From: Streptomyces sp. ICC1
Lineage (GTDB): Bacteria; Actinomycetota; Actinomycetes; Streptomycetales; Streptomycetaceae
NCBI RefSeq assembly: GCF_003287935.1
Contig: NZ_CP030287.1
Location: 8,183,375-8,207,231, forward strand
Length of the DNA: 23,857 nucleotides
Direction of reading: 5' to 3'
The notes beneath the pieces are model-generated. The model was not told where the DNA came from, did no database searches, and saw only the letters and a list, made by a program, of their open reading frames with translations. The stretch's first letter is position 1. Every line of letters begins with the position of its first letter. Shown in pieces: positions 4,169 to 20,045 of the stretch. The translations under genes were made by a program, and so were the position numbers.

Positions 4169-5857
4169 GTGCCACAGGACGGGACGAGCGGCAGTGTCGT
4201 GGTGGCCGGACGGTACCGCCTGCAGGAAAGGCTGGGCCGCGGCGGGATGGGGACCGTCTGGCGGGCCGCCGACGAACTCCTCGGACGCCCGGTCGCCGTC
4301 AAGGAGCTCCACCTCGGTGAGGGCGACCCGGACGGCGTGGCCGCCGGGGCGCTGCGCGAGGCGCGCGCCGTGGCGCACGTGCGCCACCCCCACGTCGTCG
4401 TGGTCCACGACATCGTCGAACACGACGGACGGCCCTGCATCGTCATGGAGTTGGTCGACGGCGGCTCGCTCGCCGAGCTGATCGCCGCCGGGAGGACGCT
4501 CACCCCGGTCGAGGCGGCCCGGACCGGGCTCGCGCTCCTCGGAGCCCTGACCGCGGCCCACTCCCGGGGGGTCCTCCACCGGGACGTCAAACCGGCCAAC
4601 GTGCTGATGGAGGCGGGCACCGGCCGGGTGGTGCTCACCGACTTCGGCATCGCGCGGCTCGCCGGGGCCACCACCATCAGCGAGACCGGCGCGTTCGTCG
4701 GCTCGCCCGAGTACACCGCTCCCGAGCGGATACAGGGTGCCCAGGCGGGTCCGGCGTCCGACCTGTGGTCGCTGGGTGCGCTGATGTGCGCCGCCCTGAC
4801 CGGCGAATCGCCCTTCCGGCGCGATTCGCTGGGCGGGATCCTGCACGCGGTCGTCTCCGGCGAGATCCGGCCGCCCGCGCAGGCGGGCCCGCTGCTGCCC
4901 GTCGTCCGCGGTCTGCTGGAGCGGGATCCGGAGCGCAGGATGACGGCGCCCGAAGCCGAACGGCTGCTGTCGGCGTACCTGGCGGGCGGCGGCCACCACC
5001 AGCCCGCCGACCGGATCCCGGCATCCGGCCCCGCCCCCGTGTCCGGCCCCTCCCTGGTGTCCGGCTCCGCCCGCGTGTCCGGCTCCGTCCTGGTGTCCGG
5101 TTCCGAACCGGCCCCGGGCTCCGAGGGTTTGACGGCGCCTGCCGTACCCCCGCGCCCGACGGCAAGGCAGCTCGTCGCCACCCGGCCGGGCCTGCGCGCC
5201 GGGCTGCTCGCGGCCGCCCTCGTCCTCGCGGTGGGCGGGGCGGTGGCCGGGGTCTCGCTGCTCGGCGACGAGGACCGGGAACAGGGGCGGCAGGTGGCGG
5301 CCGGCCCCTCCGGCACCCCCGCGACCTCCTCCCCGAGCCCGGTGGGCGCGGCTCAGGCCACCGCGCCGGCCATCGCCACGGGTGAACTGCCCGCCGGATA
5401 CCGGACCTTCGCCGACCCGCAGGGCTTCACCATCGCCGTACCCGAGGGGTACCAGCGGGCCACCGACGACCAGCGGGTCTTCTACATCTCCCCGGACGGC
5501 GCCTTCCGCATCGGGATCCGGGTGAAGATGCCGGTCCCCGGCGGCCCGCTCGGCGTGATGCGCCAGTCCCACGCGAAGGGCCCGGACACCAACCCCGGCT
5601 ACCGCGGTGGCACGGTCGTGTCGACGACCCGCGGCACACTCCCCGCGGCTCTCTGGGAGTTCACCTGGGACGGCTTCACCCCGGCCGAGGGCGCCCGGCA
5701 CACCTACGACCTCTGCTGGGACGAGAACGGCCGGATGTACGACATCTGGGTCTCCGCGCCCGTCGGCCGACTCGCCGAGGCGAAGCGCCACTTCGACACC
5801 GCCGTGGCCACCTTCGCCCCCGGCGCCCCGGGCCCGGTGGCCCCGGACGCCCCCTGA
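4169..5857 (+). CDS. Membrane-anchored PASTA-less Ser/Thr protein kinase
   Basis: A 562-residue Hanks-type kinase. Visible motifs are the glycine loop GRGGMG (23-28), catalytic Lys45, helix-C Glu64, HRDVKPANV (137-145), DFG (158-160) and APE (184-186), so the catalytic domain is complete (about 14-270). A low-complexity linker (285-320) follows, then a transmembrane helix (about 343-366). The C-terminal domain of about 190 residues should lie outside the cell; it is not a PASTA repeat and I cannot name it. I chose GTG 4169 because GGGGGAGG sits 5 bases upstream; ATG 4136 in frame is the alternative but has no comparable site. It is divergent from the NACHT gene, with 142 bp between starts. 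Substrate unknown. Confidence 0.93.
   Translation: MPQDGTSGSVVVAGRYRLQERLGRGGMGTVWRAADELLGRPVAVKELHLGEGDPDGVAAGALREARAVAHVRHPHVVVVHDIVEHDGRPCIVMELVDGGSLAELIAAGRTLTPVEAARTGLALLGALTAAHSRGVLHRDVKPANVLMEAGTGRVVLTDFGIARLAGATTISETGAFVGSPEYTAPERIQGAQAGPASDLWSLGALMCAALTGESPFRRDSLGGILHAVVSGEIRPPAQAGPLLPVVRGLLERDPERRMTAPEAERLLSAYLAGGGHHQPADRIPASGPAPVSGPSLVSGSARVSGSVLVSGSEPAPGSEGLTAPAVPPRPTARQLVATRPGLRAGLLAAALVLAVGGAVAGVSLLGDEDREQGRQVAAGPSGTPATSSPSPVGAAQATAPAIATGELPAGYRTFADPQGFTIAVPEGYQRATDDQRVFYISPDGAFRIGIRVKMPVPGGPLGVMRQSHAKGPDTNPGYRGGTVVSTTRGTLPAALWEFTWDGFTPAEGARHTYDLCWDENGRMYDIWVSAPVGRLAEAKRHFDTAVATFAPGAPGPVAPDAP
5021..5110 (+). repeat. 18-bp tandem repeat inside the kinase linker
   Basis: Five head-to-tail 18-bp units (starts 5021, 5039, 5057, 5075, 5093) encode five six-residue units of the form VSGSxx or ASGPxx just before the transmembrane helix. 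Because the unit is a multiple of three, copy number can change linker length without breaking the frame. Confidence 0.85.
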
Positions 5858-5875
5858 CGCGCCCGGGCCCGTCCG

Positions 5876-6044
5876 CTACGGACGCAGCACCACCAGGCCG
5901 TCCGCCGTCCGCAGGCTGCCCGGTACCAGCGGGGCGAAGGTGCGGGGGAGCGCGAGGCCCGGGAGCCCGTCCTCCTGCGGCGCCCGCGGTGCGTCGAAGA
6001 GGTACGCCGCCTCCGAGGCGCTGTCGCTGACCAGGTGCGGCCCG
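5876..6044 (-). pseudogene. 3' remnant of an unidentified minus-strand gene
   Basis: The minus strand between about 6044 and the TAG at 5878-5876 encodes about 56 residues ending in GSLRTADGLVVLRP. This looks like the C-terminal end of a larger protein: no start codon or ribosome binding site suits it, and the sequence upstream of about 6045 belongs to a different gene on the other strand. The ending (short beta-strand-like segments and a hydrophobic finish) recalls C-terminal domains of glycoside hydrolases, but I cannot assign a family. It looks like one side of a deletion whose other side is the GH13 fragment at 6045-6659. Confidence 0.4.
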
Positions 6045-6659
6045 ACGTGGGTGCTGTCGAACCATGACGTGGTGCGCCATGTGACCCGGTTCGGGGGCGG
6101 GGCGCGGGGGCTGGCCCGGGCGCGGGCGGCCGCGCTGCTGATGCTGGCGCTGCCCGGGTCGGCGTACGTGTACCAGGGCGAGGAGCTGGGTCTGCCCGAG
6201 GTGGTGGACCTCCCGGACTCCGTGCGCCAGGACCCGGCGTTCGCCAGGGGCGAGGGACAGGACGGGCTGCGCGACGGCTGCCGCGTACCGATCCCCTGGT
6301 CGGGTACGCGGGCCCCGTACGGGTTCGGTGACGGCGGAAGCTGGCTGCCGCAGCCCGCAGACTGGGCCGGGCTCAGCGTGGCCGCGCAGACCGGCGACCC
6401 GCACTCGACGCTGGAGCTGTACCGCGCCGCGCTGCGGATCCGCCGCTCGCACCCCGCGCTGGGCGCCGGCGACGCCGTGGAGTGGCTGGAGGCCCCGGAG
6501 GGCGTTCTCGCCTTCCGCCGCGGCGACTTCACGTGCACGGTGAACACGACGGACGAGCCGGTACGGATACCCGCGCCGGGCACGGCCCTGCTGTCGAGCG
6601 GGGACCTCGCCGACCCGGACGTACTGGCACCCGACACGGCGGTGTGGTGGCGCGGGTGA
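6045..6659 (+). pseudogene. GH13 alpha-glucosidase, 3' fragment only
   Basis: About 204 residues that begin abruptly at TWVLSNHDVVRHVTRFGG and run to a normal stop (TGA 6657-6659). NHD is conserved GH13 region IV, and the downstream sequence (SAYVYQGEELGLPEV, then a short C-terminal beta domain) is typical of oligo-1,6-/alpha-glucosidases of maltose-type operons. Conserved regions I-III, with the nucleophile Asp and acid Glu, are absent, so any product would be inactive. The frame is open upstream, but the sequence before 6045 is not GH13-like and has no credible start. The stop overlaps the GTG of the LacI-family gene, so the original operon junction is intact at this end. I infer a deletion that removed the 5' part. 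Confidence 0.85.
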
Positions 6660-7690
6660 CCGCACCGCTCCGGCTGACGGACATCGCCGCGCAGGCCGAG
6701 GTCAGCGAGGCGACCGTCAGCCGTGTCCTCAACGGCAAGTCGGGCGTGGCGTCCGGCACCCGTCACAAGGTGCTGGCCGCCATGGACCTGCTGGGCTACG
6801 AGCGGCCGGTACGGCTGCGCCGGCGCAGCAACGGCCTGGTCGGCCTGCTGATCCCGGAGCTCACCAACCCCATCTTCCCGGCGTTCGCCCAGGTCATCGA
6901 GCAGGCGCTGGCGGGGCACGGCTACACGCCGGTCCTGTGCACGCAGACGCCGGGCGGGGCGACCGAGGACGAGCTGGTGGAGCAGTTGGAGGAGCGCGGG
7001 GTCACGGGCATCGTGTTCCTGTCGGGCCTGCACGCCGACTCCTCCGCCGACCCGTCCCGCTACCAGCGGCTCGCGGCCCGGGGCGTCCCGTTCGTCATGA
7101 TCAACGGCTTCAACGAGCAGGTCCAGGCGCCGTTCATCTCCCCGGACGACCGCGCGGCGGCGGACATGGCGGTACGCCACCTGGAGGACCTCGGGCACCG
7201 GCGGATCGGCCTGGCCATCGGGCCGACGCGCTACGTCCCGTCGGCCCGCAAGGAGGCGGGCTTCACTGCCGCGCTCCCCTCGGCGGCGGCCGAGGGGCTG
7301 ATCCAGCGCACCCTGTTCACGGTGGAGGGCGGCCACGCGGCGGGCGGAGCCCTGCTGGACCGCGGCTGCACGGGCATCGTGTGCGGCAGCGACCCCATGG
7401 CGCTGGGTGTGATCCGCGCGGCGCGCGAGCGGGGGCTGCGCGTGCCGGAGGACGTCTCGGTGGTCGGCTTCGACGACTCCCCGCTGATCGCCTTCACGGA
7501 CCCGCCGCTGACGACGATCCGCCAGCCGGTGCGCGCCATGGCCACGGCCGCGGTCGGCGCCCTCCTCGAGGCCGTCGCCGGCACCCCGGTGCAGCGCACG
7601 GAGTACGTCTTCCAGCCGGAGCTGGTGGTACGGGGGTCGACGGGCCAGGGGCCGGGGGACTCGCCGCCCAGACGTGATCTCGATACCTGA
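6656..7690 (+). CDS. LacI-family transcriptional regulator
   Basis: A 344-residue regulator with an N-terminal LacI helix-turn-helix (residues 6-28, LTDIAAQAEVSEATVSRVLNG), hinge (about 45-60) and periplasmic-binding-like sugar domain (about 61-330, including SVVGFDDSPLIAFTDPPLTTIRQP). GTG 6656 overlaps the stop of the alpha-glucosidase fragment (GTGA); GTG 6644 and 6647 are in-frame alternatives. Such linkage points to control of alpha-glucoside use. Since the glucosidase is now a fragment, the regulator may act elsewhere or be left over; transport genes are not in view. No terminator was found in the 100 bp after it. Confidence 0.93.
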   Translation: MTAPLRLTDIAAQAEVSEATVSRVLNGKSGVASGTRHKVLAAMDLLGYERPVRLRRRSNGLVGLLIPELTNPIFPAFAQVIEQALAGHGYTPVLCTQTPGGATEDELVEQLEERGVTGIVFLSGLHADSSADPSRYQRLAARGVPFVMINGFNEQVQAPFISPDDRAAADMAVRHLEDLGHRRIGLAIGPTRYVPSARKEAGFTAALPSAAAEGLIQRTLFTVEGGHAAGGALLDRGCTGIVCGSDPMALGVIRAARERGLRVPEDVSVVGFDDSPLIAFTDPPLTTIRQPVRAMATAAVGALLEAVAGTPVQRTEYVFQPELVVRGSTGQGPGDSPPRRDLDT

Positions 7691-7790
7691 GAGCTACGCG
7701 CAAACCCCACTCCACAGCGGGACGCGGTGTGGCGGCTCCCCGCAGGAACATGAGCCTGTAACCGAGGCCCACCCAGCGGGGAGCATCAAG

Positions 7791-8051
7791 ATGTCCACCC
7801 AGAAGACCACCACGACCGTCACCCTGGCCACCCTCGGCACCGCCGTTCCCGCCTTACGGGCGTGGGGCGCCCGGGCCGCGCGCCCGGCGCTCGCCCTGCC
7901 GGTGGGCCTCGCCGCCCTCGCCCTCACCGTGGTCGGCCGCCGCCGGGCCGACTCCCTCCAGGCGTGGTCCAGCGGCGCCAGGATCCTGAGGGCAATGGCC
8001 CGCGGCCAGCGGGCAATAACCGGCCGAGTCGCCGGACGTCAGACGACCTGA
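7791..8051 (+). CDS. Small single-pass membrane protein, unknown function
   Basis: An 86-residue basic protein with one hydrophobic stretch (about residues 32-48, PALALPVGLAALALTVV) between Thr-rich and Arg-rich flanks. It resembles no family I can name. ATG 7791 has GGGGAG about 9 bases upstream, a good ribosome binding site. It stands alone: the LacI-family gene ends 100 bp before it, and the next gene starts 94 bp after it. The positively charged C-terminal side suggests that this end stays in the cytoplasm. Confidence 0.65.
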   Translation: MSTQKTTTTVTLATLGTAVPALRAWGARAARPALALPVGLAALALTVVGRRRADSLQAWSSGARILRAMARGQRAITGRVAGRQTT

Positions 8052-8145
8052 GCAGGCGGAACCCTTCGATCGTCTGGATCTTGATTCCGAACGTCAAATG
8101 TTCTAACGTCGCGGGACTTCCCACCTTCCACCCGAAGAAGTGCCC

Positions 8146-8574
8146 ATGCCTCGCCGATCGCCGGGCGAGATCAGGCTCCGGCTTTCACGCCGGGCCGACC
8201 AGGCTCCGCACCGACGGACAGCCGTGATCCGAGGGATCTCTGCGTCGACGAACGGGCAGCTTGCACACTTCGAGCGCAGTCGAGGTCTCCCGGTCGGCGA
8301 GGTCGCGCACGCGTTCCACCGATGGAGTTCCCTTGCCCGTAGGCCGAGGCGGGATCTCGCCCCGTTCTACGGATACGACCAGGGAAACCTCGAGTGCGGC
8401 TACTACAACGTCCGCACGCTGCTGGAGATAGTGCTCCACGCCCTCCCCAAAAGAGCGCGACGCGAACTGCACGCGCTCCTCGCTCCCGTGGACGCCCAGA
8501 TCCTCCGACGCACGGCCCACAACCCCTTCGCTCCCCCCGACCTCCCCTGGTGGAAACGCCGAATCGAACTGTGA
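8146..8574 (+). CDS. Hypothetical protein, basic, actinobacterial type
   Basis: A 142-residue Arg-rich protein with no motif I recognise. It is probably cytosolic and mostly helical in its second half (NVRTLLEIVLHALPKRARREL), ending in a Pro/Trp-rich tail (PPDLPWWKRRIEL). ATG 8146 is preferred; GTG 8140, two codons earlier, is in frame. GAAGAAG lies just upstream. The region around it (8050-8150) is less GC-rich than the neighbours, and the first copy of the window's repeat family begins within 40 bp of its stop, so this may be an accessory segment. Confidence 0.6.
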   Translation: MPRRSPGEIRLRLSRRADQAPHRRTAVIRGISASTNGQLAHFERSRGLPVGEVAHAFHRWSSLARRPRRDLAPFYGYDQGNLECGYYNVRTLLEIVLHALPKRARRELHALLAPVDAQILRRTAHNPFAPPDLPWWKRRIEL

Positions 8575-8611
8575 CGCGGGGCCGTTGGGTTGGGGCGGGA
8601 CGCGCTGGCGG

Positions 8612-8783
8612 GGTGACGTGGACGGCGGGTCGGTGGCGGCGGGACCTGCGTGCGGGGTGGCTTCGACGGTTGTCGGGGGGAGAGAAGGGGAGGGACGGCC
8701 CGGTCGCGGCAGCCCGCCCGTGGCGTTGAGGCGCACCGGATCGCTACACAGTCGCTCTCGGCATAGCGGCTACAGGCCGTCTT
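8612..8783 (-). repeat. Repeat-family tail without the central palindrome (empty site)
   Basis: Read on the minus strand, this block matches the tail found at 23444-23536 and resumes at 23696: TGTGTAGCGATC, then GGTGCGCCTCAACGCCA, GGCGGGCTGCCGCGACC, and CTCCCCCCG running directly into ACAACCGTC. At the junction (between 8673 and 8674) the other copies carry a 157-159 bp palindrome that is absent here. It lies in the 294-bp gene-free gap after the hypothetical gene; I see no promoter or coding signal in it. Confidence 0.85.
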
Positions 8784-8868
8784 GCGTTGGGCGCCGACAG
8801 CCCGAGACGCTGTCAAGGAAGGGATCGCGACGACGAAACCTCGGTCGGGGCACCTCGGGAAGCTCCGG

Positions 8869-8949
8869 TCAGCAGATGCCGACGAGGATGGAGGTGAGTA
8901 CACCGAGGACGATGAGGACGTAGAGGACCTGCCGCAGGAGCTCGGTCAC
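8869..8949 (-). CDS. 26-residue hydrophobic microprotein
   Basis: The reading frame VTELLRQVLYVLIVLGVLTS followed by ILVGIC is a short charged start followed by one membrane-spanning helix. On length alone it would be ignorable. However, its GTG (8949-8947) overlaps the TGA of the zinc-ribbon-like gene by four bases (GTGA), the same arrangement that joins the two genes above it. So it is the third gene of a tightly coupled operon. There is no strong ribosome binding site of its own, as expected for coupled translation. Function unknown; candidates are a membrane partner of the preceding proteins or a small toxin-like peptide. Confidence 0.55.
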   Translation of the reverse strand: MTELLRQVLYVLIVLGVLTSILVGIC

Positions 8950-9098
8950 GGATCGCGTACTCGGATCGGTCGGCACTCTGGATCCGTCCAGTTGTGAGCG
9001 TGCTGGTCTGGGCGGGCACCGGACGCCGAATGCCCGGGGATCGTCTCGTAGTCCTTGCTCAGGATCGGCCGGTCACAGTGGCAACAGAAGCGCGTCAC
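8946..9098 (-). CDS. 50-residue putative zinc-binding protein
   Basis: A very small protein starting VTRFCCHCDRPI. Cys5 and Cys8 form a CxxC pair, and His33/His35 with Cys42 could complete a metal site, so a small zinc ribbon or treble clef is likely (inference). GTG 9098 overlaps the stop of the upstream gene (GTGA), and its own TGA overlaps the GTG of the microprotein gene, placing it in the middle of a three-gene unit on the minus strand. Similar short CxxC proteins are common near regulators in Streptomyces, but I know no function for this one. Confidence 0.65.
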   Translation of the reverse strand: MTRFCCHCDRPILSKDYETIPGHSASGARPDQHAHNWTDPECRPIRVRDP

Positions 9099-9424
9099 TG
9101 GACGGCGCTCGACTCGTACTCGCTGAGAGCCGAAATCAAGGCCCGCGCGATCCTGGCCAGGCCGCGGGCGTGGTTCCAATTCGCGTTCGGCTCGGAACTC
9201 CGCGGGCCGACCGCCGAGACGTACTCCCATTCGTCGACCGCGCTGGTGATCTTGGGGGCCCGCTGGTTCTGGGGAATGCGTACCGCGGCATCGTGGAGCC
9301 GCTGGCCGCACGTGATGAGGTCGTCGATGAGAAGGGCCACACCCTCAGCGGGCGGGCGTTCGGGATAGGGGGCGAGAGCCGTGGCAATCAGCTCCTGGAG
9401 GTTCCTGCCTGCTTGCGTCGCCAT
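9095..9424 (-). CDS. Hypothetical helical protein, first gene of a micro-operon
   Basis: A 109-residue, mostly helical, acidic protein (for example GVALLIDDLITCGQRLHDAA and HARGLARIARALISALSEYE). The pattern vaguely recalls small Streptomyces DUF6415-like proteins, but I cannot confirm that. ATG 9424 has GGGG about 7 bases upstream. It is divergent from the TPR-type regulator gene (start 9574) and translationally coupled to the next gene by a GTGA overlap, so the regulator may have controlled this operon. Confidence 0.7.
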   Translation of the reverse strand: MATQAGRNLQELIATALAPYPERPPAEGVALLIDDLITCGQRLHDAAVRIPQNQRAPKITSAVDEWEYVSAVGPRSSEPNANWNHARGLARIARALISALSEYESSAVQ

Positions 9425-9573
9425 GGTTTACCCCGGGTTCGTCAGCGCGTCCAGTGCTTGCAAGTGGATGATTGCGCTGCATGCAGATGGGCAAATAGGC
9501 CATCGCATGGCCATCGATGGCCACGTGGCGGCCATGGCCGGGGATATGTGCGATGACACCTCAGACTGGGGCC

Positions 9574-10818
9574 ATGGGCCACCGAAACGACGCGCTCAGG
9601 GCCGCCCGACTCCGGGTCGGATGGCGCAGCATGGACGCCGCCGCTGCGGCGCTCAGCATTCACGGGCAGCAGTTCCTCGACGACCGCTCGTACGAAGTGT
9701 CCGCGCGAACGTGGCGCCGCTGGGAAGGCACCAGCCCGGGCTGGCCGTCGGAAGAGACTGCCACGGTGCTCCACGACGCACTCGGCCGATGGCCTGAAGA
9801 ACTCGGCTTCCGGGTGCCCGCAGGCTGGATCCGACCCGAAGCCCACCCGGAGGACGACGTGAGACGCAGGACGTTCGTATCCGTGACGGCGGCCGCACTC
9901 ATGCCCGGTCCCGTCGCCACCCAGCACGTCGACCCCGCCCTCATCGACTACTTCCAGCAGCAGCTGGAAGGTCACTACCGCGCCGACATGTTCCTTGGCC
10001 CTCACGACCTCGTCGGTACCGTCAGCGCTCAATTCCAGCTCATCGACAAACTCATCCGCAGCGCGAAGGGCGAGACCCGTCGCGGGCTCCTCCGGGCGGG
10101 CGCCGCGTACGCCGCCCTCGTCGGCTGGCTCTACCAGGACGCTGGTGACCTCGGCGCGGCCGCGTTCTGGCGGGGAATCACGCAGGAGATCGCGGCCCGG
10201 TCCCGCGACCCGCACCTTGTCGGATACTCGCTCGTCAATCTTGCTCAGGTCCGCACCGATCTCGGGGACGGGCACGGCGTCATCGATTTGTGCGAGGCCG
10301 TGCTCGAAGACGACCGCGTTGTCCCCAAGGTGCGGGTCATGGCGATGCAGCAACAGGCCCACGGCGCCAGTCTCACCGGTGACCGCACCGCCGTCGACCG
10401 CCTCATCGACACTGCGGGCGGGCTCATCTCCCGCGTGGACGACGACCTGCCGTGGGGTAACGCCTGTCGGCGCACCCCGGGCTACCTCGAGGTGCAGCGG
10501 GCCACCTGCTATGGCCGTCTCGGCCTGGGCCGGGAGGCGGAGTCGTTGTAGTCGCAAGTGCTCCACGCGGTTCCCGCGGCCGCCCGCCGGGACCGCGGCG
10601 TTTACCTCGCCCGGCACGCTACGGCGGCCGCCTTGGCCCGCGAGCCGGAGCAGGCAGTGGAGATCGCCCGAACTGCCGTGGAGATCGTGGCAGAGACCCG
10701 ATCGGCGCGGATGCACCGTGAACTACGCGGACTGGAGCGGGCCATGAGGCCGTGGCACGATGCCCCGGTAGGCCGGGACCTCGCAGAGATCCTGGCGCCC
10801 GTGAACAAGGGGAGCTGA
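9574..10818 (+). pseudogene. TPR-type HTH regulator broken by an in-frame TAG
   Basis: The product resembles Streptomyces regulators with an N-terminal helix-turn-helix (residues about 4-60, NDALRAARLRVGW to ARTWRRWEG) and a long tetratricopeptide-like helical region. A conserved RRRTFVSVTAAAL segment lies at about 98-110. The frame is open for 325 codons, meets TAG at 10549-10551 (after LGLGREAESL), and continues for 88 more codons (SQVLHAVPAAARRD to LAPVNKGS) with family-like TPR sequence up to TGA 10816-10818. A single C-to-T change in CAG would explain it. I start at ATG 9574; ATG 9553 is in frame. The gene is divergent from the three-gene micro-operon. It may be truncated but partly functional, suppressed, or a sequencing error. 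Confidence 0.8.
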
Positions 10819-10819
10819 C

Positions 10820-11134
10820 ATGGGCGTACCGAAGCCGTTGTCCGACGAGGCGATCGCCGAGCAGCTGGCCGGACTGCCGGGGTGGGAGCGCAAGGGTGAC
10901 GAGATCACCCGCACCTACGAGATCCGCTACCACGCGGCCGTCGCAGCGATCGTGACCATCGCGGACCGGTCCCGACGCATCCAGCACCACGCTGACCTGG
11001 ACCTCCGCATCGACAGTCTGCGCGCGTCGATCACCACCCACGATGCCGGCCACCGCTTGACCCACGCAGACTTCGATCTCGCGCACCGCATCGACGTGAT
11101 CGTGGCTGCACACCAATCACTCCCACTGGACTGA
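10820..11134 (+). CDS. phhB: Pterin-4a-carbinolamine dehydratase
   Basis: A 104-residue enzyme that removes water from 4a-hydroxytetrahydrobiopterin during pterin cofactor recycling. The core QHHADLDL (55-62) and THDAGHRLTHADFDLA (73-88) matches the family, with catalytic histidines at His56, His57 and His74. The usual Pro after HH is Ala here. Length is standard. ATG 10820 follows the stop of the TPR regulator frame by one base, with AAGGGGAG upstream, so they form one transcription unit. There is no aromatic amino acid hydroxylase nearby, so its role here is unclear. The gene is followed by a hairpin and then repeats. Confidence 0.88.
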   Translation: MGVPKPLSDEAIAEQLAGLPGWERKGDEITRTYEIRYHAAVAAIVTIADRSRRIQHHADLDLRIDSLRASITTHDAGHRLTHADFDLAHRIDVIVAAHQSLPLD

Positions 11135-11147
11135 CGCAGGATGCACA

Positions 11148-11187
11148 AAGGGCCTCTCCCGCGCCCGGAAGGGCGGGGAGGGGGCTT
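11148..11187 (+). terminator. Hairpin after the carbinolamine dehydratase gene
   Basis: A long stem with a GGAA loop (11067-11070 plus 100, that is 11167-11170): CCTCTCCC-G-CGCCC pairs with GGGCGGGGAGGGG with one bulged base, flanked by AA and TT that also pair. It lies 13 bp after the stop codon. Confidence 0.65.
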
Positions 11188-11251
11188 GATGTCGTCTGAG
11201 GGTGATCCGTTCGTCCTTAGAGTCCGAGAGCTGATCGTTTACCTCCCAACC
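11188..11251 (+). repeat. Array leader, copy 1
   Basis: This block, running from GATGTCGTCTGAGG through TTCGTCCTTAGAGTCCGAGA to GATCGTTTAC, is closely matched at 23162-23222 (GACGTCGTCTGGCG, CCATAGAGTCCGAGAACTGA, TCATTCAC). In both places it stands at the head of a 66-bp tandem array. No coding or promoter pattern is evident. Confidence 0.75.
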
Positions 11252-11352
11252 GGCCGCCAAACCGGCACAAAAAGGGCCACTCAAGGTCCTCGCGGACCAG
11301 AAGGGCGTCCCACCCGCACTCGCCTCCTCGAAGGGGCGCCCCACCGCCCTCG

Positions 11353-11683
11353 GCGGCTTGTGTTCGACCCCAGGCGACCCGCAGTCGCCTCCCCAGAGGG
11401 GCAAATGCTGCGCCTGGGCGGCTTATGTCCGGCTGCAGACGGTCGTCGGCCGCTGAGTCGAGAAGGGGAACGTCTCGGCGCTGGTGCGGCTTATGTCCAG
11501 CCGTAGACGGTCGTCGGCCGCTAAGCCGGCCAGAGAACGTGTGGCGGGTGTGCGGCTTATGGCCAGCCGTAGACGGTCGTCGGCCGCTAAGCCGGCCAGA
11601 GAACGTGTGGCGGGTGTGCGGCTTATGCCCGGCCACAGACGGCCGTCGGCCGCTATGCCAACCGGGACTGTGTAGCGATCTGG
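11353..11683 (+). repeat. Tandem array, about 66-bp unit, five copies
   Basis: Units start with GCGGCTTATG or GCGGCTTGTG at 11353 (degenerate), 11418, 11486, 11552 and 11618, spaced 65, 68, 66 and 66 bp. The unit contains GTCCAGCCGTAGACGGTCG and GTCGGCCGCTAAGCCGGCC. The last unit runs into the TGTGTAGCGATC tail. No reading frame in it looks real. With the leader and tails it fills the gene-free stretch from 11188 to 12078. Confidence 0.9.
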
Positions 11684-12065
11684 TGCGCCTCAACGCCAGA
11701 GGCGGGCTGCCGCGACCGGGCCGTCCCTCCCCTTCTCTCCCCCCGGCCATCCTTCGGGGGGATCCCGGGAGTCTTGTGTTGTTCCGGGACGGGACGGTCG
11801 GTCAAGGGTGGCCGAAGGCCATCGCGTAGCGACGCGACCGGAGGGAGCGCCCTTGAGGGGCCGGCCCGGCGCGGAAGGACACAAGACTCCCGGGACGCCC
11901 ACCGATACCCGTCAAAGCCACCGACCAGGCGGGCCCCGCCACCTCGGCGCCTCCTGCCGGCCGTCGCAGCCACCCCGCCTCTGGCGTTGAGGCGCACCAG
12001 ATCGCTACACAGTCCCGGTTGGCATAGCGGCCGACGGCCGTCTGTGGCCGGGCATAAGCCGCACA
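11615..12065. repeat. Large inverted repeat with perfect 92-bp arms
   Basis: Bases 11615-11706 and 11974-12065 are exact reverse complements. Each arm carries the end of the array unit plus the TGTGTAGCGATC tail (11669-11680 and 12000-12011). The spacer holds the palindromic element at 11746-11904, and the whole structure is nearly symmetric about 11830-11840. A cruciform is possible. It could also in part be an assembly fold-back near the adapter at 12086. Confidence 0.9.
11746..11904 (+). mobile_element. 159-bp imperfect palindromic element, copy A
   Basis: The element starts GCCATCCTTCGG after CCCCCCG and ends GACGCCCACCG. Inside are perfect 16-base arms CCCGGGAGTCTTGTGT (11764-11779) and its complement (11879-11894), then imperfect arms down to a tip TCGC-GTA-GCGA (11822-11832). 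It encodes nothing. Insertion into the repeat tail is inferred from the copy at 8612-8783 that lacks it; CCG on both sides could be a 3-bp target duplication. Confidence 0.6.
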
Positions 12066-12085
12066 ACCGCCACACGTTGCGCCTA

Positions 12086-12119
12086 GTCTCGTGGGCTCGG
12101 AGAGGTGTATAAGGGACAG
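12086..12119 (+). other. Nextera Read 2 adapter inside the sequence (chimeric join)
   Basis: These 34 bases match the Nextera Read 2 transposon adapter at 32 positions, including GTCTCGTGGGCTCGGAGA at the start; the two mismatches are at 12104 and 12114. The 7 bases before it (12079-12085) do not continue the genomic repeat and are about index-sized. This is library sequence, so 12085 and 12120 are not proven neighbours in the genome. Confidence 0.96.
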
Positions 12120-12133
12120 GGTCTGGCGGGTCC

Positions 12134-12169
12134 GGGGTGGGGGCCCGGGAACACCCGGGCTCCCACCCC
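12134..12169 (-). terminator. Strong hairpin after glutamate dehydrogenase
   Basis: Arms of 16 bases (12134-12149 and 12154-12169) pair at all positions with one G-T pair, around the loop AACA. It lies 22 bp past the gdhA stop on the minus strand, and 14 bp from the adapter. Confidence 0.8.
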
Positions 12170-12191
12170 ACCCGCCCGAAGGGCGGCTGCC

Positions 12192-14304
<2,113 letters not shown>

Positions 14305-14392
14305 TGCTCCGGCCGGAAAGGTCCACCGAGGAGGGCCCGCGGCCAGATCTCCACGCCGTACGGCCCCCGGAAATCCGCATGTAGCGCACACG

Positions 14393-14398
14393 TAGGCT
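14393..14398 (+). promoter_or_regulatory. Candidate -10 element for a leaderless transcript
   Basis: TAGGCT ends 6 bases before the ATG at 14405, and no ribosome binding site stands between them. This spacing would put the transcript start at or next to the ATG, as in leaderless actinobacterial messages. The -35 region is not clear. Confidence 0.45.
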
Positions 14399-14404
14399 GC
14401 GGAA

Positions 14405-14908
14405 ATGACCACCAGCCCCGGGACCGCCCCCCGGACTCCCGCCCTCCGCCTCGAACCGGTCACCCCGGACACCTTCGACGCCGCCTGCGCGCTGTCGGTC
14501 CGCCCCGACCAGGCGCATCTGGTCGCCCCGGTCGTCAAGTCGCTGGCCGAGGCGTACGTCCACGGGGCGACGGCCTGGCCGCGGGCGGTCGTCGACGGCG
14601 ACGAGGTCGTCGGCTTCGTGATGGCCTTCCTCGACATCGCGTGGAACCCGGCCGAGGACCCCCGCGACATCCGCTCCGGCCTGTGGCGCCTGAACATCTC
14701 CGCCGCCCACCAGTCCAAGGGGTACGGGCGCTTCGCGGTCGAGGCGGTCACCACCGAGCTCCGCACCCGCGGCGCCTCGCACGCCTACGTCACCTATCAC
14801 CTCGGCCCCGGCACCCCCGAACCGTTCTACCTGGCCCTGGGTTTCCGCCCGACGGGCGAGACGAGCGACGGGGAAACGGTCGCCGTGCTGGATCTGACGG
14901 CCCCGTGA
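14405..14908 (+). CDS. GNAT-family N-acetyltransferase
   Basis: A 167-residue acetyltransferase. The acetyl-CoA site is seen as LWRLNISAAHQSKGYGRFAV (residues 93-112, with Q103, G106 and G108 of the QxxGxG/A motif), and the C-terminal PFYLALGFRPTGE segment is typical. The LNISAAHQSKGYG style resembles polyamine acetyltransferase-like members, but the substrate cannot be told. The start lacks a ribosome binding site and follows a TAGGCT -10 element, so the message may be leaderless. It converges on the AraC-type gene, with a hairpin in the 34-bp gap. Confidence 0.9.
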   Translation: MTTSPGTAPRTPALRLEPVTPDTFDAACALSVRPDQAHLVAPVVKSLAEAYVHGATAWPRAVVDGDEVVGFVMAFLDIAWNPAEDPRDIRSGLWRLNISAAHQSKGYGRFAVEAVTTELRTRGASHAYVTYHLGPGTPEPFYLALGFRPTGETSDGETVAVLDLTAP

Positions 14909-14916
14909 CTCCCGGT

Positions 14917-14933
14917 GCCGGGCCCGGCCCGGC
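14917..14933. terminator. Hairpin between converging GNAT and AraC genes
   Basis: GCCGGGC (14917-14923) and GCCCGGC (14927-14933) form a perfect 7-bp stem with a 3-base loop in the 34-bp gap between the two stop codons. It could serve both strands. Confidence 0.5.
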
Positions 14934-14942
14934 CACGCCCCG

Positions 14943-15869
14943 CTACGACGCGGACAGCGCCCCCGCCACCGCCCCCGCCCTGAACTGCCGCGGGCTGATC
15001 CCCCGTACCCGCTTGAAGGCCGTCGACAGGGCGAAAGCCGAGCTGTAGCCGACCTGGTGGGCGGCCGAGGCGAGCGTCGTCGACGGGTCGCGCAGCAGGT
15101 CCGCCGCCAGGGCCAGGCGCCAGCCCGTCAGGTAGGTCATCGGGGGCTCGCCGACCAGCTCGGTGAAGCGGCGGGCCAATGCGGCCCGGGAGACACCGAC
15201 CTTGCGGGCCAGCGACTCCACCGTCCAGCCGTGCGCGGGGTTCTCGTGGAGCAGCCTCAGCGCCGGCCCGGTCACCGGGTCGCTCTCGGCGCCGCCGCGC
15301 TCCGCGAGCCAGTCCCGTACGACGCCGATCACCAGCAGGTCCAACAGCCTGCCCAGGACCACGTCCTGGGCAGGTTCGGAGCGGGAGATCTCCCCGCCGA
15401 GCAGCGTGACCAGGCTCGGGTCCACCGGCCCGACCAGCACCCGCGGCAGCGCGTCGAGCAGGCGGCTGCCGATCTCGCCCGGCTCCTGGTAGGTGCCGCT
15501 CAGCAGCACCACGGAGCCGGCCTCCTCGCCCCACGTCCGCACCCCGAGCGCCATGGAGTCGGACACGTCCTCCCCGTCGTCCACCCTGCTGCACCGCTGG
15601 TCCGGTCCCACCCTGATCTGCACGGGCGTGTCCCGGTCGTCGCCGACGGTGTACGGGTCCGGCCCGCGGACCAGGACCGCCTCGCCCGGCTCGACGAGCA
15701 CCGGCTCGCCCCCGTCGGGGAGCAGCCACGCCGACCCGTTCACCGTCGTCATCACCGACAGCGGGGCCCGGTCCTCGATCCGGACCGCCCAGGGCGGGGT
15801 GAAGACGGACTTGATGAAGAAGGCCGACCGGGCCTTGGGTCCTTCGAGGAGAGCCGTCAGCGTGTCCAT
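14943..15869 (-). CDS. AraC-family regulator with N-terminal cupin domain
   Basis: A 308-residue regulator. Residues about 5-190 form a cupin-like sensor (VNGSAWLLPDGGEPVLVEPGEAVLV) of the kind found in AraC proteins that control small redox or NAD(P)-binding enzymes. The C-terminal 100 residues carry two helix-turn-helix units (WTVESLARKVGVSRAALARRF and TLASAAHQVGYSSAFALSTAF) and the end motif GISPRQFR. ATG 15869 matches the family's usual beginning (MDTLTALLEGPKARSAF); the ribosome binding site is weak. It lies 64 bp downstream of the NmrA-like gene on the same strand and probably regulates it. Confidence 0.92.
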   Translation of the reverse strand: MDTLTALLEGPKARSAFFIKSVFTPPWAVRIEDRAPLSVMTTVNGSAWLLPDGGEPVLVEPGEAVLVRGPDPYTVGDDRDTPVQIRVGPDQRCSRVDDGEDVSDSMALGVRTWGEEAGSVVLLSGTYQEPGEIGSRLLDALPRVLVGPVDPSLVTLLGGEISRSEPAQDVVLGRLLDLLVIGVVRDWLAERGGAESDPVTGPALRLLHENPAHGWTVESLARKVGVSRAALARRFTELVGEPPMTYLTGWRLALAADLLRDPSTTLASAAHQVGYSSAFALSTAFKRVRGISPRQFRAGAVAGALSAS

Positions 15870-15933
15870 CGGCCCATTCTCCCCGAGCGGTTCCCGCTCG
15901 CCCCGCTCTCCCGCCGAGGCTCCGGCGCCGTTC

Positions 15934-16755
15934 CTACGCGTCCCAGACACCGCGGGCCGCCGCCTCCCGCACGAAGTCGGAGAAGTCCTTGGGCCGCCGG
16001 CCCAGTACCTCCTCGACCCCGCCCACCAGGTGCGCGTTGCGCCCGTCGAGGATCAGCTCGAACAGTTCCGCGAACTCCTCCGGCAGCCCGTTGTCGCGCA
16101 GCACCGCCCGGTAGGCCTCGTTCGAGACCGGGACGTACGCGATCTCGCGCCCGGTGGCCTTCGACAGCTCGGCGGCGACGTCGGCGAAGCTGAGCAGCCG
16201 CGGCCCGGAGAGCTCGTACGTGCGGCCGATGTGCCGGTCGTCGGTCAGCGCGGCCACCACCACGTCGGCGATGTCGTCGGCGTCGACGAACGGCTCGACG
16301 GCATCGGCCGTCGGCAGGGCGATCTCGCCCGCCAGCACGGGCTCCAGGAAGAAGCTCTCGTCGAAGTTCTGGTTGAACCAGGCCGCCCGCACGACGGTCC
16401 AGTCGGCCCCGGACTCCTTCAGCGCGTCCTCGCTGCGCTCCGCCGCCTCCTCGCCGCGCCCCGACAGCAGCACCATCCGACGCGCGCCCGCCGCCACCGC
16501 CACCCGGGCGAAAGCGCCGACCTGCTCGGCGGCGCCGGGGAAGCCGAGGTCGGGGTAGTACGTGACGTACACCCGGTCCACGCCCTGCAGGGCCGGCCCC
16601 CAGCTCTCGGGGTCGTTCCAGTCGAAGGCCGGCTCACCGGTGCGCGAACCGATGCGGACCTGCCGGCCCAGGGCGGTGAGCTTCTCGGCCACGCGCCGAC
16701 CCGTCTTGCCCGTGCCGCCGATGACCAATGTCTGCGTGCTCTCTGTCTTCGTCAT
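15934..16755 (-). CDS. NmrA-like NAD(P)-binding protein
   Basis: A 273-residue atypical short-chain dehydrogenase of the NmrA/NAD(P)H-binding type. The N-terminal nucleotide site VIGGTGKTGRRV has the GxxGxxG pattern at residues 13-19, and ELSGPRLLSFADVAAEL is typical of this family. There is no YxxxK catalytic pair in the usual place, as is common for NmrA-like proteins, which may act as redox sensors or quinone reductases. ATG 16755 is chosen; the TTG 12 bases upstream is in frame but weaker. The AraC-type gene follows on the same strand. Confidence 0.9.
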   Translation of the reverse strand: MTKTESTQTLVIGGTGKTGRRVAEKLTALGRQVRIGSRTGEPAFDWNDPESWGPALQGVDRVYVTYYPDLGFPGAAEQVGAFARVAVAAGARRMVLLSGRGEEAAERSEDALKESGADWTVVRAAWFNQNFDESFFLEPVLAGEIALPTADAVEPFVDADDIADVVVAALTDDRHIGRTYELSGPRLLSFADVAAELSKATGREIAYVPVSNEAYRAVLRDNGLPEEFAELFELILDGRNAHLVGGVEEVLGRRPKDFSDFVREAAARGVWDA

Positions 16756-16822
16756 GGCCCCAGTCAACGCTCATCGCGCTGGACGGAACATCGCCGAGAA
16801 GCTCAATCGCATACGCCTGCGT

Positions 16823-17026
16823 CTACTTCGCGGCGAGAGTGTGCGCCACGAGCGCGTTGGCGTGCCCGTGTCCGAGGCCGTGCTCGCTCTTGAGCCAGGC
16901 GACGAGCTCCATGTGCTTGGTCAGCGGCGAGGAACGGATGAGCTCCTGCCATTCCGCGATCGGACGGCCGTGCTTCTTCTCGATGGAAGGGAAGTAGCTG
17001 GCGGGGCCCTTCACCGGCTCGGTCAT
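16823..17026 (-). CDS. DUF4287 protein
   Basis: A 67-residue protein with the DUF4287 features SYFPSIEKKHGRPIAEW and WLKSEHGLGHGHANALVAH. Function is not established for the family. ATG 17026 has GAGGAAGAAG about 9 bases upstream; the GTG at 17053 would add nine residues without a good site. It runs in the same direction as the NmrA-like gene 67 bp further on, and is divergent from the alpha/beta hydrolase gene. Confidence 0.85.
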   Translation of the reverse strand: MTEPVKGPASYFPSIEKKHGRPIAEWQELIRSSPLTKHMELVAWLKSEHGLGHGHANALVAHTLAAK

Positions 17027-17129
17027 GGCGGTCTTCTTCCTCTCGGTGCGCACAGGGAACGGCCGCCCTGCGTCTCACGATGGATGGACGCCCGGCAGCC
17101 CGAAAACTCATCGGTCGTACCGCGAAAAT

Positions 17130-17147
17130 ATCGGATGATCTTCCGAT
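17130..17147. promoter_or_regulatory. Inverted repeat overlapping a start codon
   Basis: ATCGGA (17130-17135) and TCCGAT (17142-17147) flank TGATCT, and the second arm runs into the ATG at 17146. AAAATAT just upstream could be the -10 element. A protein bound here would block transcription start of the hydrolase gene. Confidence 0.45.
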
Positions 17148-17979
17148 GATGTGGACCGAGCGCACTGTCACCCGAGCCGGCGTACGCCTGACCTGCCGCG
17201 ACTGGCACCCGCACGCCACCGCCACGGACTCCGCCGCCACCCCCGTCGTACTCCTCCACGGCCTCGCGGGCCACGCGGGCGAATGGGACGCGGCCGCCGC
17301 CCACCTCGCACCGCACCACCGCGTGGTGGCGGTGGACCAGCGCGGCCACGGCGCGAGCGAGCGCCGCCCCGCCGACGTCTCCCGCGCCGCGTACGTGGCG
17401 GACGTGCGGGCCGTCTGCGAACAGCTCGGCCTGCACCGCCCGGTGCTGGTGGGCCAGTCGCTCGGCGGCCACACCTCGATGCTCACCGCGGCCGCCCACC
17501 CGGACCTCGTACGGGGCCTCGTGCTGGTCGACGCGGGCGCGGCCGCCGGCGATCCGGGCACCGCCGAGGAAATCGGCTCCTGGCTGGACTCCTGGCCGGT
17601 CCCCTTCCCCTCGCCGGCCGCGGCGCGGGACTTCCTCACCGGACAGGGCTTGAACGGCGAGGTCTGGGCGGCCGGCCTGGAGCAGCGCGCGGACGGCTGG
17701 CACCCGCGGTTCGAGCGCTCGGTGATGGTCGCGGCCATCAGCGAGAACAGCACCCGCGACTGGTGGCCGCAGTGGCGCGCGGTCCGCTGCCCGGCGCTGC
17801 TCGTCGTCGGGGAGAAGGGCATCATCCCGCCCGCGGAGTCCGTCCGGATGCTCGACTCCGCCGACCCGTCCACGAGGATGACGGCCGTCTCGGTCCCGAA
17901 CTCCGGCCACGACGTCCACCTGGACCAGCCCGCGGTCCTGCACGGCCTGCTGTCCGACTTCCTCGCGACGCTCGCCTGA
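17146..17979 (+). CDS. Alpha/beta hydrolase
   Basis: A 277-residue serine hydrolase of the alpha/beta fold. Seen are the oxyanion segment VVLLHGLAGHAGEW (34-47), DQRGHGASERR (64-74), the nucleophile elbow GQSLGG with Ser105, and the catalytic His255 in NSGHDVHLD. The acid is probably in the VDAGAAAGD or VVGEKG region. Ester, amide or epoxide substrates cannot be told apart. ATG 17146 and 17149 are adjacent; neither has a ribosome binding site, and an inverted repeat overlaps the start, so the message may be leaderless and repressed. It is followed by a hairpin and a truncated gene. Confidence 0.9.
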   Translation: MMWTERTVTRAGVRLTCRDWHPHATATDSAATPVVLLHGLAGHAGEWDAAAAHLAPHHRVVAVDQRGHGASERRPADVSRAAYVADVRAVCEQLGLHRPVLVGQSLGGHTSMLTAAAHPDLVRGLVLVDAGAAAGDPGTAEEIGSWLDSWPVPFPSPAAARDFLTGQGLNGEVWAAGLEQRADGWHPRFERSVMVAAISENSTRDWWPQWRAVRCPALLVVGEKGIIPPAESVRMLDSADPSTRMTAVSVPNSGHDVHLDQPAVLHGLLSDFLATLA

Positions 17980-18000
17980 GCCCCGGCCCGCCCCCGACCC

Positions 18001-18050
18001 TTACGGGGCTGCGCCCGGCCCCGCCGCCGCCCCCGGGCGCAGCCCCGTAA
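18001..18050. terminator. 18-bp inverted repeat at a gene-truncation point
   Basis: TTACGGGGCTGCGCCCGG (18001-18018) and its exact complement (18033-18050) enclose a 14-base loop. This GGGGCTGCGCCC type of hairpin is widespread between Streptomyces genes and would end the hydrolase transcript 22 bp after its stop. The next gene's conserved sequence starts within its right arm. Confidence 0.8.
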
Positions 18051-18967
18051 CGGCTGCCACCCAGCTCAGCCTGTTCACCGTGGACGGCCTGATACGCGCC
18101 CACGTGCGCCGGGACACCGGCGCCTGGCACCCGCCGACCGACGTGCACCGCGCGTACCTGCGCTGGGCCGCCACCCAGCACGACTGGGGCCCCGACGAGC
18201 GCCGCACGGACAACGGCTGGCTCGCGCAGGAGGAGTGGCTCTACGCCCGCCGCGGTCCCGCCCGCGCCTGCATGACCGGTTTCGCCGACGGCACCCTCGG
18301 CACCCTCGACCAGCCCAAGAACCCCACCGCCCGCGACGCGGCCGCCACCACCCGCTCGGCGCCCTTCGGGCTGCTCGTCGGCTGGGAGCCCGCGCTCGTC
18401 CTCCAACTCTCCGTCGAATGTGCCGCGCAGAGCCACGGCCACCCCGCCGCGTACCTGTCGGCGGGCGCCCTCGCCGTCATCGTCCACGGGCTGACCCGCG
18501 GCGAATCCCTCGACGCCGCCGTCCAGCGCGCGCTCGGCCTGCTCGGCGTCCGCCCCGGACACCAGCCCGTCACGGACGCCCTGCAGCGGGCGCTGGCGGC
18601 CGTCACGGCCGGCGCCCCGTCGGCGAAGGCCATCGAGGCGCTGTCCCCCGGCGACGGCCGCGACGCCGAGGACGTCCTCGCCATCGCCGTGTACTGCGCC
18701 CTCGTCGCCGAGAACGTGGCGCACGGCCTGCGCCTCGCCGTGAACCACGGCGGCGACTCCGCCGCCACGGGCGCGCTGTGCGGGGCGCTGCTCGGCGCGC
18801 AGCACGGCGAGACCGCCCTCCCGGCGGGCTGGCTGGCCGGCCTCGAGGGCCGCGCCACGGTCCTGGAGCTCGCGGACGACTTCGCCCTGGAGATGACCCA
18901 GGGCCCCGCCCTGCACAGCCCGACGGCCGCCTCCCCCGGCTGGCTGGCCCGCTACCCGCGCGGCTGA
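18047..18967 (+). pseudogene. ADP-ribosylglycohydrolase-family gene lacking its 5' end
   Basis: Family-like sequence starts at VTAATQLSLFTVDGLIRA without any start codon, directly at the edge of the hairpin 18001-18050. The first possible in-frame start is GTG 18080 (VDGLIRAHVRR), without a ribosome binding site, giving 295 residues. ADP-ribosylglycohydrolases need an N-terminal segment of about 60-70 residues (fold start and part of the two-metal site) before this point, which is missing. The C-terminal metal motif reads NHGGDSAATGA where HxGDSDxTG is usual, so one Asp is Ala. Reversal of protein ADP-ribosylation is therefore unlikely unless a divergent form is still active. Confidence 0.75.
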
Positions 18968-19126
18968 CCGGCGCCCGGCCCACGGCCGGAACCGCGGCCG
19001 AACCGCGCCCCGGACCACCGTCCCGCGGCCGCGGTCACACCGGGCGCGGTGGCCGACGCGCGCCCCTCCCGTCCGCGCACGCGAAGCCGTACCTTGGCCG
19101 TCCCACTCACGGAGGTGCCAGCGCAC

Positions 19127-19987
19127 ATGCGGATCGCCACGACCATCTTCCTCACCGACCGCACCATCTCTCCCGTACGCCTCGCCCGCGCTCTCGAGGA
19201 GCGCGGCTTCTCCGGCCTCTACCTCCCGGAGCACACCCACATCCCGGTCAGCCGCGTCACCGCCGCGCCCATGGGCGGCGAGCTCCCGGAGATGTACGGG
19301 CGCACCCTGGACCCCTTCGTCGCCCTCGGCCAGGCGTCCGCCGTGACCGAGCGGCTCCACCTCGGCACGGGCATCACCCTCGTCGCCCAGCACGACCCCA
19401 TCGGCCTCGCGAAGCAGGTCGCCACGCTGGACCACCTGTCCGGCGGCCGCGTCACCCTCGGCATCGGCTACGGCTGGAACGTCGAGGAGGCCGCCGACCA
19501 CGGCGTCGAGTGGCGCGGCCGCCGCGAGCTGGTCCGCGACCGCATGGCCCTGATGCGCGCCCTGTGGGCCCCCGAACCCACCGCGTACGTCGGCGAGTTC
19601 TCCTCGGTCCAGGCCAGCTCCGCGCACCCCAAGCCCGCGCAGGCCCCGCGCGAACTCGCCCCGGGCGTGCCCCTGTACGGCCCCCGCACCATGATCGGCG
19701 GCCAGGCCGGCCCCAAGCTCTTCGCAGCGATCGCCGACCACTCCGACGGCTGGCTCCCGATCGGCGGCGGCGGCCTGACGGAATCCCTCCCGGTGCTGCG
19801 CCAGGTCTGGGAGGCCGCGGGCCGCGACCCCAAGTCCCTCCAGGTGGTCCCGTACGCCGTCCAGCCCACCCCGGGAAAGATGGCCCACTATGCCGACCTG
19901 GCCATCGAGGAGGTCGTCCTCCAGCTCCCCTCACAGGGCGAAGCTGAGGTCCTGGCCGTCCTGGACGACTTCGCGCGGTACCTCTGA
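19127..19987 (+). CDS. LLM-class F420-dependent oxidoreductase
   Basis: A 286-residue luciferase-like TIM-barrel protein. The sequence GFSGLYLPEHTHIPVS, then LHLGTGITLVAQHDPIGLAKQVATLDHLSGGRVTLGIGYGWN, matches the actinobacterial subgroup that uses coenzyme F420 to reduce or oxidise small molecules; the substrate is unknown. ATG 19127 follows GGAGG (19111-19115) at 11 bases. It stands 159 bp after the truncated glycohydrolase gene; the GC-rich gap holds nothing I recognise. The small hypothetical gene at 20046 follows on the same strand. Confidence 0.92.
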   Translation: MRIATTIFLTDRTISPVRLARALEERGFSGLYLPEHTHIPVSRVTAAPMGGELPEMYGRTLDPFVALGQASAVTERLHLGTGITLVAQHDPIGLAKQVATLDHLSGGRVTLGIGYGWNVEEAADHGVEWRGRRELVRDRMALMRALWAPEPTAYVGEFSSVQASSAHPKPAQAPRELAPGVPLYGPRTMIGGQAGPKLFAAIADHSDGWLPIGGGGLTESLPVLRQVWEAAGRDPKSLQVVPYAVQPTPGKMAHYADLAIEEVVLQLPSQGEAEVLAVLDDFARYL

Positions 19988-20045
19988 CCCGGCTTCCGCG
20001 AAAACCCCTTGGGCAAGGCCCCGCACACACCCCGAGAATGACCGC

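What the first reader, a model, noticed from the sequence alone, without database searches (positions are those of the whole stretch)
12086..12119. Sequencing adapter in the middle: the window is a chimera of two pieces
The 34-base Nextera Read 2 adapter (32/34 match) sits between a repeat and the gdhA terminator. The 7 bases before it stop following the genomic repeat. A biological element would not match a synthetic adapter over its full length. Any conclusion that relies on phhB and gdhA being neighbours is unsafe.
Basis: partly seen in the sequence, partly recalled or inferred. Interest (0 to 1): 0.8.

Follow-up and report, generated by a model that had tools for sequence, protein, structure and literature searches.

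The report
Leftover sequencing adapter marks false join
This stretch of "chromosome" is really several separate assembly fragments glued end to end, with synthetic sequencing adapter left at some of the seams, so genes that look like neighbours here are often not neighbours in the bacterium.

Summary
Bases 12086-12119 are the Nextera Read 2 adapter (32/34), preceded by the damaged end of sample index N706. It is one of 18 Read 2 and 22 Read 1 adapter copies (up to 3 mismatches) in the window's own 9,034,319-base, one-contig record. In the last 1.2 Mb, index N706 fits best in 13 of 15 Read 2 copies and S504 in 21 of 26 Read 1 copies.

The artefact is much wider than one seam. The record looks like short-read contigs joined without spacers, longest first. 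Exact repeats pile up at 127-128 bases, a k-mer overlap. A maltose/glucan gene cluster that is contiguous in relatives lies in seven separate places here. Around the window, contig lengths inferred from the seams fall from 6063 to 4879 bases; 0 of 20,000 randomised controls fit such a decline. The window holds at least four contigs, not two, with seams near 6043, 12078 and 18058. The last was predicted from contig length before I read the sequence there.

There is no new biology here. The value is a warning about the record and a sequence-only way to recognise others like it.

The parts
1..6042 (.). contig piece 1 (about 6052 bases in the record, counted from the masked seam before the window)
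   Evidence: N run and transposon end just before the window; ends where a 127-base contig overlap begins
6043..12078 (.). contig piece 2: starts inside an alpha-glucosidase gene, holds a LacI-type regulator and phhB, ends in a repeat
   Evidence: 127-base exact overlap with 8371190-8371316 starts exactly at 6043; gene continues a frame that stops at 8297886; repeat ends at 12078
6043..6169 (.). 127-base exact overlap shared, inverted, with record 8371190-8371316
   Evidence: length equals the spike of contig overlaps
12079..12085 (+). damaged end of the i7 sample index N706 (gccta exact)
   Evidence: index identity
12086..12100 (+). Nextera Read 2 adapter core, exact
12101..12119 (+). Tn5 mosaic end of the adapter, 2 mismatches; marks the start of a contig
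   Evidence: orientation rule
12120..18058 (.). contig piece 3 (gdhA, AraC-type regulator, hydrolase); end placed to within tens of bases
18059..23801 (.). contig piece 4: begins inside an ADP-ribosylglycohydrolase gene that lacks its first ~52 profile positions
   Evidence: no adapter and no 127-base overlap found at this seam
23802..23820 (-). Tn5 mosaic end (2 mismatches); marks the end of a contig
23821..23834 (-). Nextera Read 1 adapter core (1 mismatch)
23835..23842 (-). damaged i5 sample index S504 (6 of 8)
   Evidence: identity

Best explanation
The 34 bases are laboratory adapter, not genome. A Nextera (Tn5 tagmentation) library with index pair N706/S504 was sequenced with short reads. 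Some reads ran through short inserts into the adapter. Adapters with 0-1 errors in the 19-base transposon end were trimmed or masked; copies with two or more errors mostly survived and became the dead ends of assembled contigs (inferred). A de Bruijn assembler with k=127 made the contigs (inferred from the overlap length; SPAdes is my guess). The contigs were then written one after another without spacers, longest first, into a single 9.03-Mb sequence (shown for about 0.26 Mb around the window, inferred for the rest). The adapter at 12086 is the start of one such contig, so the step from phhB to gdhA is a seam.
For: Record-wide adapters: 18 Read 2 and 22 Read 1 copies at up to 3 mismatches, reversed-pattern control 0. 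Same index pair: N706 best in 13 of 15, S504 in 21 of 26 (index names). Orientation rule: of 129 exact adapters in a capped list of 120 public stretches, 127 lie within 60 bases of a stretch end, + at starts and - at ends. Truncated error spectrum: 42 adapter cores in 1.2 Mb have 2 or more mismatches in the transposon end, none 0 or 1; in the whole record 0 exact and 3 one-mismatch copies. Exact repeats pile up at 127 (28) and 128 (17) of 311 pairs. Masked N runs: four of 14 are 47 bases, the length of P7+index+Read 2; in one 27-base run both flanks fit P7 and Read 2. Scrambled gene order against five relatives and a split alpha-glucosidase gene. Contig-length chain 6063 to 4879 with 0 of 20,000 in each of two nulls.
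Against: No raw reads or independent assembly seen. The seam at 18058 has neither adapter nor overlap; it rests on a truncated gene and on contig length. In the chain, boundaries were placed by hand to about 30 bases, four rest on transposon ends with 4 mismatches, and two steps rise slightly (6036 to 6052, 4942 to 4965) within the tolerance I set. Of six other 127-base repeats in that range, four do not fall on predicted seams; I take them for repeats inside contigs. Only 1.2 Mb of 9.03 Mb was read.
Confidence: 0.97

Rival explanations
1. The adapter is a local scar: reads with adapter were used to fill a gap, but phhB and gdhA really are neighbours and the order of the record is right.
For: Some seams of any concatenation may join true neighbours by luck; no reads were available to exclude it at this seam alone.
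Against: In G018 the two homologues are 3.15 Mb apart. None of the nine fetched 20-kb stretches of eight relatives holds genes from both sides of 12078. In all 10 relatives whose best match to the window's LacI protein is 76% or more, a second LacI homologue lies 6.2-8.5 kb away on the same contig; here the pair is 180 kb apart. The contig-length chain is not expected of a true chromosome.
Confidence: 0.02
2. The contigs were ordered along a reference genome, not by length.
For: Reference-ordered concatenation is a common practice (recalled).
Against: A gene cluster contiguous in relatives lies in seven places here, which reference ordering would have kept together. Lengths fall steadily. Full-length adapter copies per Mb rise along the record: 0, 0, 0, 1, 0, 2, 6, 7 and 24 in successive Mb (hand count of the 40 rows).
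Confidence: 0.015
3. A natural Tn5/IS50-like end or another repeat that happens to resemble the adapter.
For: The 19-base mosaic end derives from Tn5 (recalled).
Against: The copies also carry the synthetic Read 1/Read 2 tails and the index. In 40 near relatives of the genus search, G001-G024, none has a copy, and 21 of 295 genus genomes have one, this record included. Copies in G136 and G298 carry other indices, 703-like and 709.
Confidence: 0.003

Closest known systems
Illumina Nextera adapter read-through at the ends of short-read contigs
   Same: Same oligos, same orientation rule (+ at contig starts, - at contig ends) and a few to about 20 bases outside the adapter, as in public draft contigs
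   Different: Here the contig ends are hidden inside one long record, and copies with 0-1 errors in the transposon end are nearly absent
Pseudo-chromosome made by concatenating contigs
   Same: No true linkage across seams; genes cut at seams; overlaps of k bases left at both sides
   Different: No N spacers at the seams seen, and the order is by length rather than by a reference. The N runs look like masked adapter, not gaps

Membership tests
Nextera adapter read-through | Read 2 core plus mosaic end, full length | tested here: met
   32/34 at 12086-12119; 0 in 100 shuffles
Nextera adapter read-through | Sample index next to the core, the same across the library | tested here: met
   N706 best in 13 of 15, S504 best in 21 of 26, ties counted, against 9 i7 and 8 i5 indices; the window copy keeps only 5 of 8 index bases
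Nextera adapter read-through | P5/P7 sequence beyond the index | tested here: inconclusive
   Not seen at the window copy (9 of 12 mismatched); seen at some copies, e.g. 1-3 mismatches of 12 at 8879029, 8589778 and 8512771; often masked as N
Nextera adapter read-through | Lies at a contig end | tested here: met
   Repeat stops at 12078 and adapter begins; seam fits the contig-length chain
Concatenated pseudo-chromosome | Assembler k-mer overlaps between distant places | tested here: met
   45 of 311 exact-repeat pairs of 40+ bases are 127 or 128 long; 8 are 110-125 and 7 exceed 130
Concatenated pseudo-chromosome | Gene order scrambled against relatives | tested here: met
   Cluster of G014 2.097-2.122 Mb falls in seven places of the 0.8 Mb searched
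Concatenated pseudo-chromosome | Contigs in descending length | tested here: met
   17 boundaries over 8165230-8420650; 0 of 20,000 in each null; rest of the record not tested
Concatenated pseudo-chromosome | Read pairs do not span the seams | not testable with these tools
   no reads held
Natural Tn5/IS50 end | Mosaic end flanks a mobile element, without synthetic tails | tested here: not met
   Synthetic Read 2 tail and index precede the mosaic end

The most novel reading that the evidence does not exclude
The record is one of a hidden class: draft assemblies filed as few long sequences whose contigs were concatenated without spacers, with a sequence-only fingerprint (adapters of 2+ errors in fixed orientation, repeats piled up at the k-mer length, seam spacing that falls along the record). 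G136, with 38 adapter copies, some full P7-index-Read 2 copies deep inside long contigs, is a second candidate. Gene-order and gene-cluster studies that use such species representatives would be misled.
Probability: 0.5. Interest if true: 0.35.

Novelty: not a real feature. Interest (0 to 1): 0.15.

Why it matters
A record that looks like a finished 9-Mb chromosome (completeness 100's table) has no reliable gene order beyond single contigs of about 5-6 kb near the window. Any operon, gene-cluster, synteny or 'novel neighbour' claim drawn from it is unsafe, and genes at seams look truncated or fused. Other findings from this window that cross 6043, 12078 or 18058 should be discounted. The three-part fingerprint can be run on any genome without reads.

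Tried and rejected
Natural repeat or transposon end: rejected because the copies carry synthetic tails and a sample index. Local scar in true gene order: rejected by gene order in relatives. Exactly two pieces: rejected by the seams at 6043 and about 18058. N runs as scaffold gaps: rejected because lengths and flanks fit masked adapter, clearly in some (8881144, 8376484, 8938772) and only weakly in others (8183340, 8620011, 9012087).

Led nowhere or only partly: search of the record for a copy of 17700-18400 found no 127-base overlap at the seam. Rfam and tRNA scans of the window found nothing. Literature searches (listings only) showed no paper that I could recognise as describing this record or this kind of length-ordered record; I do not know the organism's name, since the record is unnamed here.

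One search's list of transposon-end places turned out to be incomplete even at 2 mismatches (one search shows places missing from it), so I did not use it for counts per Mb and repeated the search at 1 mismatch.

Full report
1. The observation. Bases 12086-12119 match the Nextera Read 2 adapter at 32 of 34 positions, once in the window at up to 3 mismatches, with 0 matches in 100 dinucleotide shuffles. A second, Read 1 type copy lies at 23802-23834 on the minus strand. Similarity of the left-hand repeat to its other copies ends at 12078 at the furthest, except for one weak alignment that runs on to 12103, and similarity to other adapter copies begins at 12081 in most cases. The bases in between and up to 12085 are what is left of the index N706; that CATGCCTA is N706 and AGAGTAGA is S504, next to exactly these cores, is printed in oligo tables of PMC10528933 and PMC8225968 (passages seen). 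Papers by the thousand print both adapters (1,230 papers hold both and the word Nextera; listing only).

2. It is a property of the record, not of the window. The window is G000:C1:8183375-8207231 of one 9,034,319-base contig. That record has 18 Read 2 copies (11 with 2, 7 with 3 mismatches) and 22 Read 1 copies (15 with 2, 7 with 3), reversed-pattern controls 0. The bare transposon end has 162 places at up to 3 mismatches, control 1, but 0 exact and only 3 with one mismatch. The 40 full-length copies are unevenly spread: 0, 0, 0, 1, 0, 2, 6, 7 and 24 in successive Mb (hand count).

3. Same library. In the last 1.2 Mb, 54 Read 1/Read 2 cores with at most 1 mismatch were found, 42 of them with a transposon end at up to 8 mismatches beside them; the other 12 have 12 or more mismatches there and were set aside as chance or broken (reversed cores: 3). 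Where the index could be read, N706 fits best in 13 of 15 Read 2 copies and S504 in 21 of 26 Read 1 copies, ties counted, against 9 i7 and 8 i5 indices. In two other genomes of the genus the same construct carries other indices: 703-like in G136 (two exact TTCTGCCT, two damaged, of four stretches) and 709 in G298. A sample barcode that changes with the genome is what a library artefact must show.

4. Why no clean copies. Among the 42 copies the transposon end has 2 mismatches in 22, 3 in 7, 4 in 6, 5 in 5, 7 in 1 and 8 in 1, and never 0 or 1. The likely cause is a trimmer or screen that accepted at most one error in the 19-base end (inferred). The 14 N runs in the 1.2 Mb are 26-47 bases long. 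Four are 47, the length of P7 (24) + index (8) + Read 2 (15), each with a run of A or T on its outer side, as expected when reads pass the end of the adapter (last point recalled). For the 27-base run at 8881144 both flanks fit (18 of 20 bases) and the missing length is exact. Placement is weak for several others, among them 8183340, 8620011 and 9012087. So exact adapter seems to have been masked; who masked it I cannot tell.

5. What an adapter marks. In a capped list of 120 public stretches with the adapter there are 129 copies, all exact: 72 on the plus strand near a stretch start, 55 on the minus strand near a stretch end (within 60 bases), 2 elsewhere. Lengths's table indicate that these stretch ends are contig ends (80 of the 120 rows were shown). 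So plus marks a contig start and minus a contig end. In the window, 12086 is a start and 23802-23834 an end. Within the genus, 21 of 295 genomes, this one included, have a copy at up to 3 mismatches.

6. Assembly overlaps. In the 1.2 Mb, 311 pairs of exact repeats of 40 bases or more were found (words present 2-12 times). 28 are exactly 127 long and 17 exactly 128; 8 are 110-125, 9 are 129-130 and 7 longer than 130. This is what contigs of a k=127 assembly share at their ends. One such pair starts exactly at window 6043, with partner 8371190-8371316 inverted.

7. Gene order. In G014 a 701-codon open frame (alpha-glucosidase type) matches the record in two parts: codons 1-474 at 8296492-8297886 and codons 482-699 at window 6045-6650, 108 kb away; a paralogous C part at 8370688-8371320 scores slightly lower (61 against 64%), so the partner is not beyond doubt, but each half stands alone. 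The maltose/glucan cluster at G014 2,097,526-2,122,108 matches seven separate places of the 0.8 Mb searched: near 8.190 (the window), 8.292-8.298, 8.335-8.340, 8.366-8.371, 8.669-8.671, 8.853-8.856 and 8.928 Mb; G018 and G005 show the same scatter, G022 and G020 in part (hits of 55% identity or more). One long frame of G014 (2103322-2108706) is cut at 8335287, inside the adapter at 8335268-8335300, and continues at 8855577. In all 10 relatives whose best match to the window's LacI protein is 76% or more, a second LacI homologue lies 6.2-8.5 kb away; here they are 180 kb apart. For the seam in question: G018 has phhB (65%) and gdhA (74%) homologues 3.15 Mb apart on one contig; G014 has the phhB homologue (81%) but no close gdhA. 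None of nine 20-kb stretches from eight relatives (seven round gdhA, two round phhB) has genes from both sides. G038, which also has gdhA, was not fetched, and gdhA's own neighbourhood did not match among these relatives' stretches either, so this last test is weak alone.

8. Order by length. The hypothesis was noted, with the prediction of a seam near 18.0-18.1 kb, before I read that sequence (the ORF list was already known). There, an ADP-ribosylglycohydrolase frame begins at profile position 53 directly after a terminator-like hairpin. No adapter and no overlap was found at that seam. With 17 boundaries between 8165230 and 8420650, the gaps divide into contigs of 6063, 6036, 6052, 6035, 5980, 5813, 5784, 5703, 5640, 5495, 5341, 5228, 5151, 4942, 4965 and 4879 bases; 0 of 20,000 sets with jittered boundaries and 0 of 20,000 with uniform ones give such a chain. 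Boundaries were placed by hand to about 30 bases, four rest on transposon ends with 4 mismatches, and two small rises lie within the tolerance. Hold-outs: the glucosidase break falls 56 bases, the 127-mer partner 3 bases, another 127-mer 46-81 bases and a weak adapter 73 bases from an interpolated seam. Four other 127-base repeats in the range (8195109, 8235756, 8388805, 8388902) do not fall on seams; I take them for repeats inside contigs. The last 127 bases of the record are themselves such an overlap, as expected if the shortest contigs come last.

9. Verdict. The finding is right: a synthetic adapter at a false join. It is wider than reported: at least four contigs in the window and a concatenated record.

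Noticed in passing
23802-23842: Second adapter in the window (Read 1 type, minus strand) with damaged S504 index, followed by 15 unmatched bases and then a masked N run in the record.
   Followed up: yes
6043-6169: Seam without adapter: a 127-base contig overlap starts inside an alpha-glucosidase gene whose other half is elsewhere in the record.
   Followed up: yes
18058-18967: ADP-ribosylglycohydrolase frame without its N-terminal part, right after a hairpin: a predicted seam.
   Followed up: partly
11410-12078; also 8674-8782, 22681-22886, 23268-23769 and record 8908965-8910737: Dispersed family of tandem ~67-base units plus a ~270-base palindromic element, no match in the 19 relative stretches searched. 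Natural repeat that probably broke the assembly.
   Followed up: partly
record G136 (C141, C3, C1) and G298:C1:775128: Full P7-index-Read 2 constructs inside long contigs of two other genomes of the genus, with other indices: likely further concatenated or gap-filled assemblies.
   Followed up: partly
790-5857: Minus-strand frame with NNH1 and NACHT domains, next to a plus-strand Ser/Thr protein kinase; both on contig piece 1. NACHT proteins include anti-phage defence proteins (recalled).
   Followed up: no
adapter copies in record 7834320-9034319: Errors in the transposon end lean to G and C: 102 of 129 substitutions are A>G, T>G or A>C. Cause not tested.
   Followed up: no
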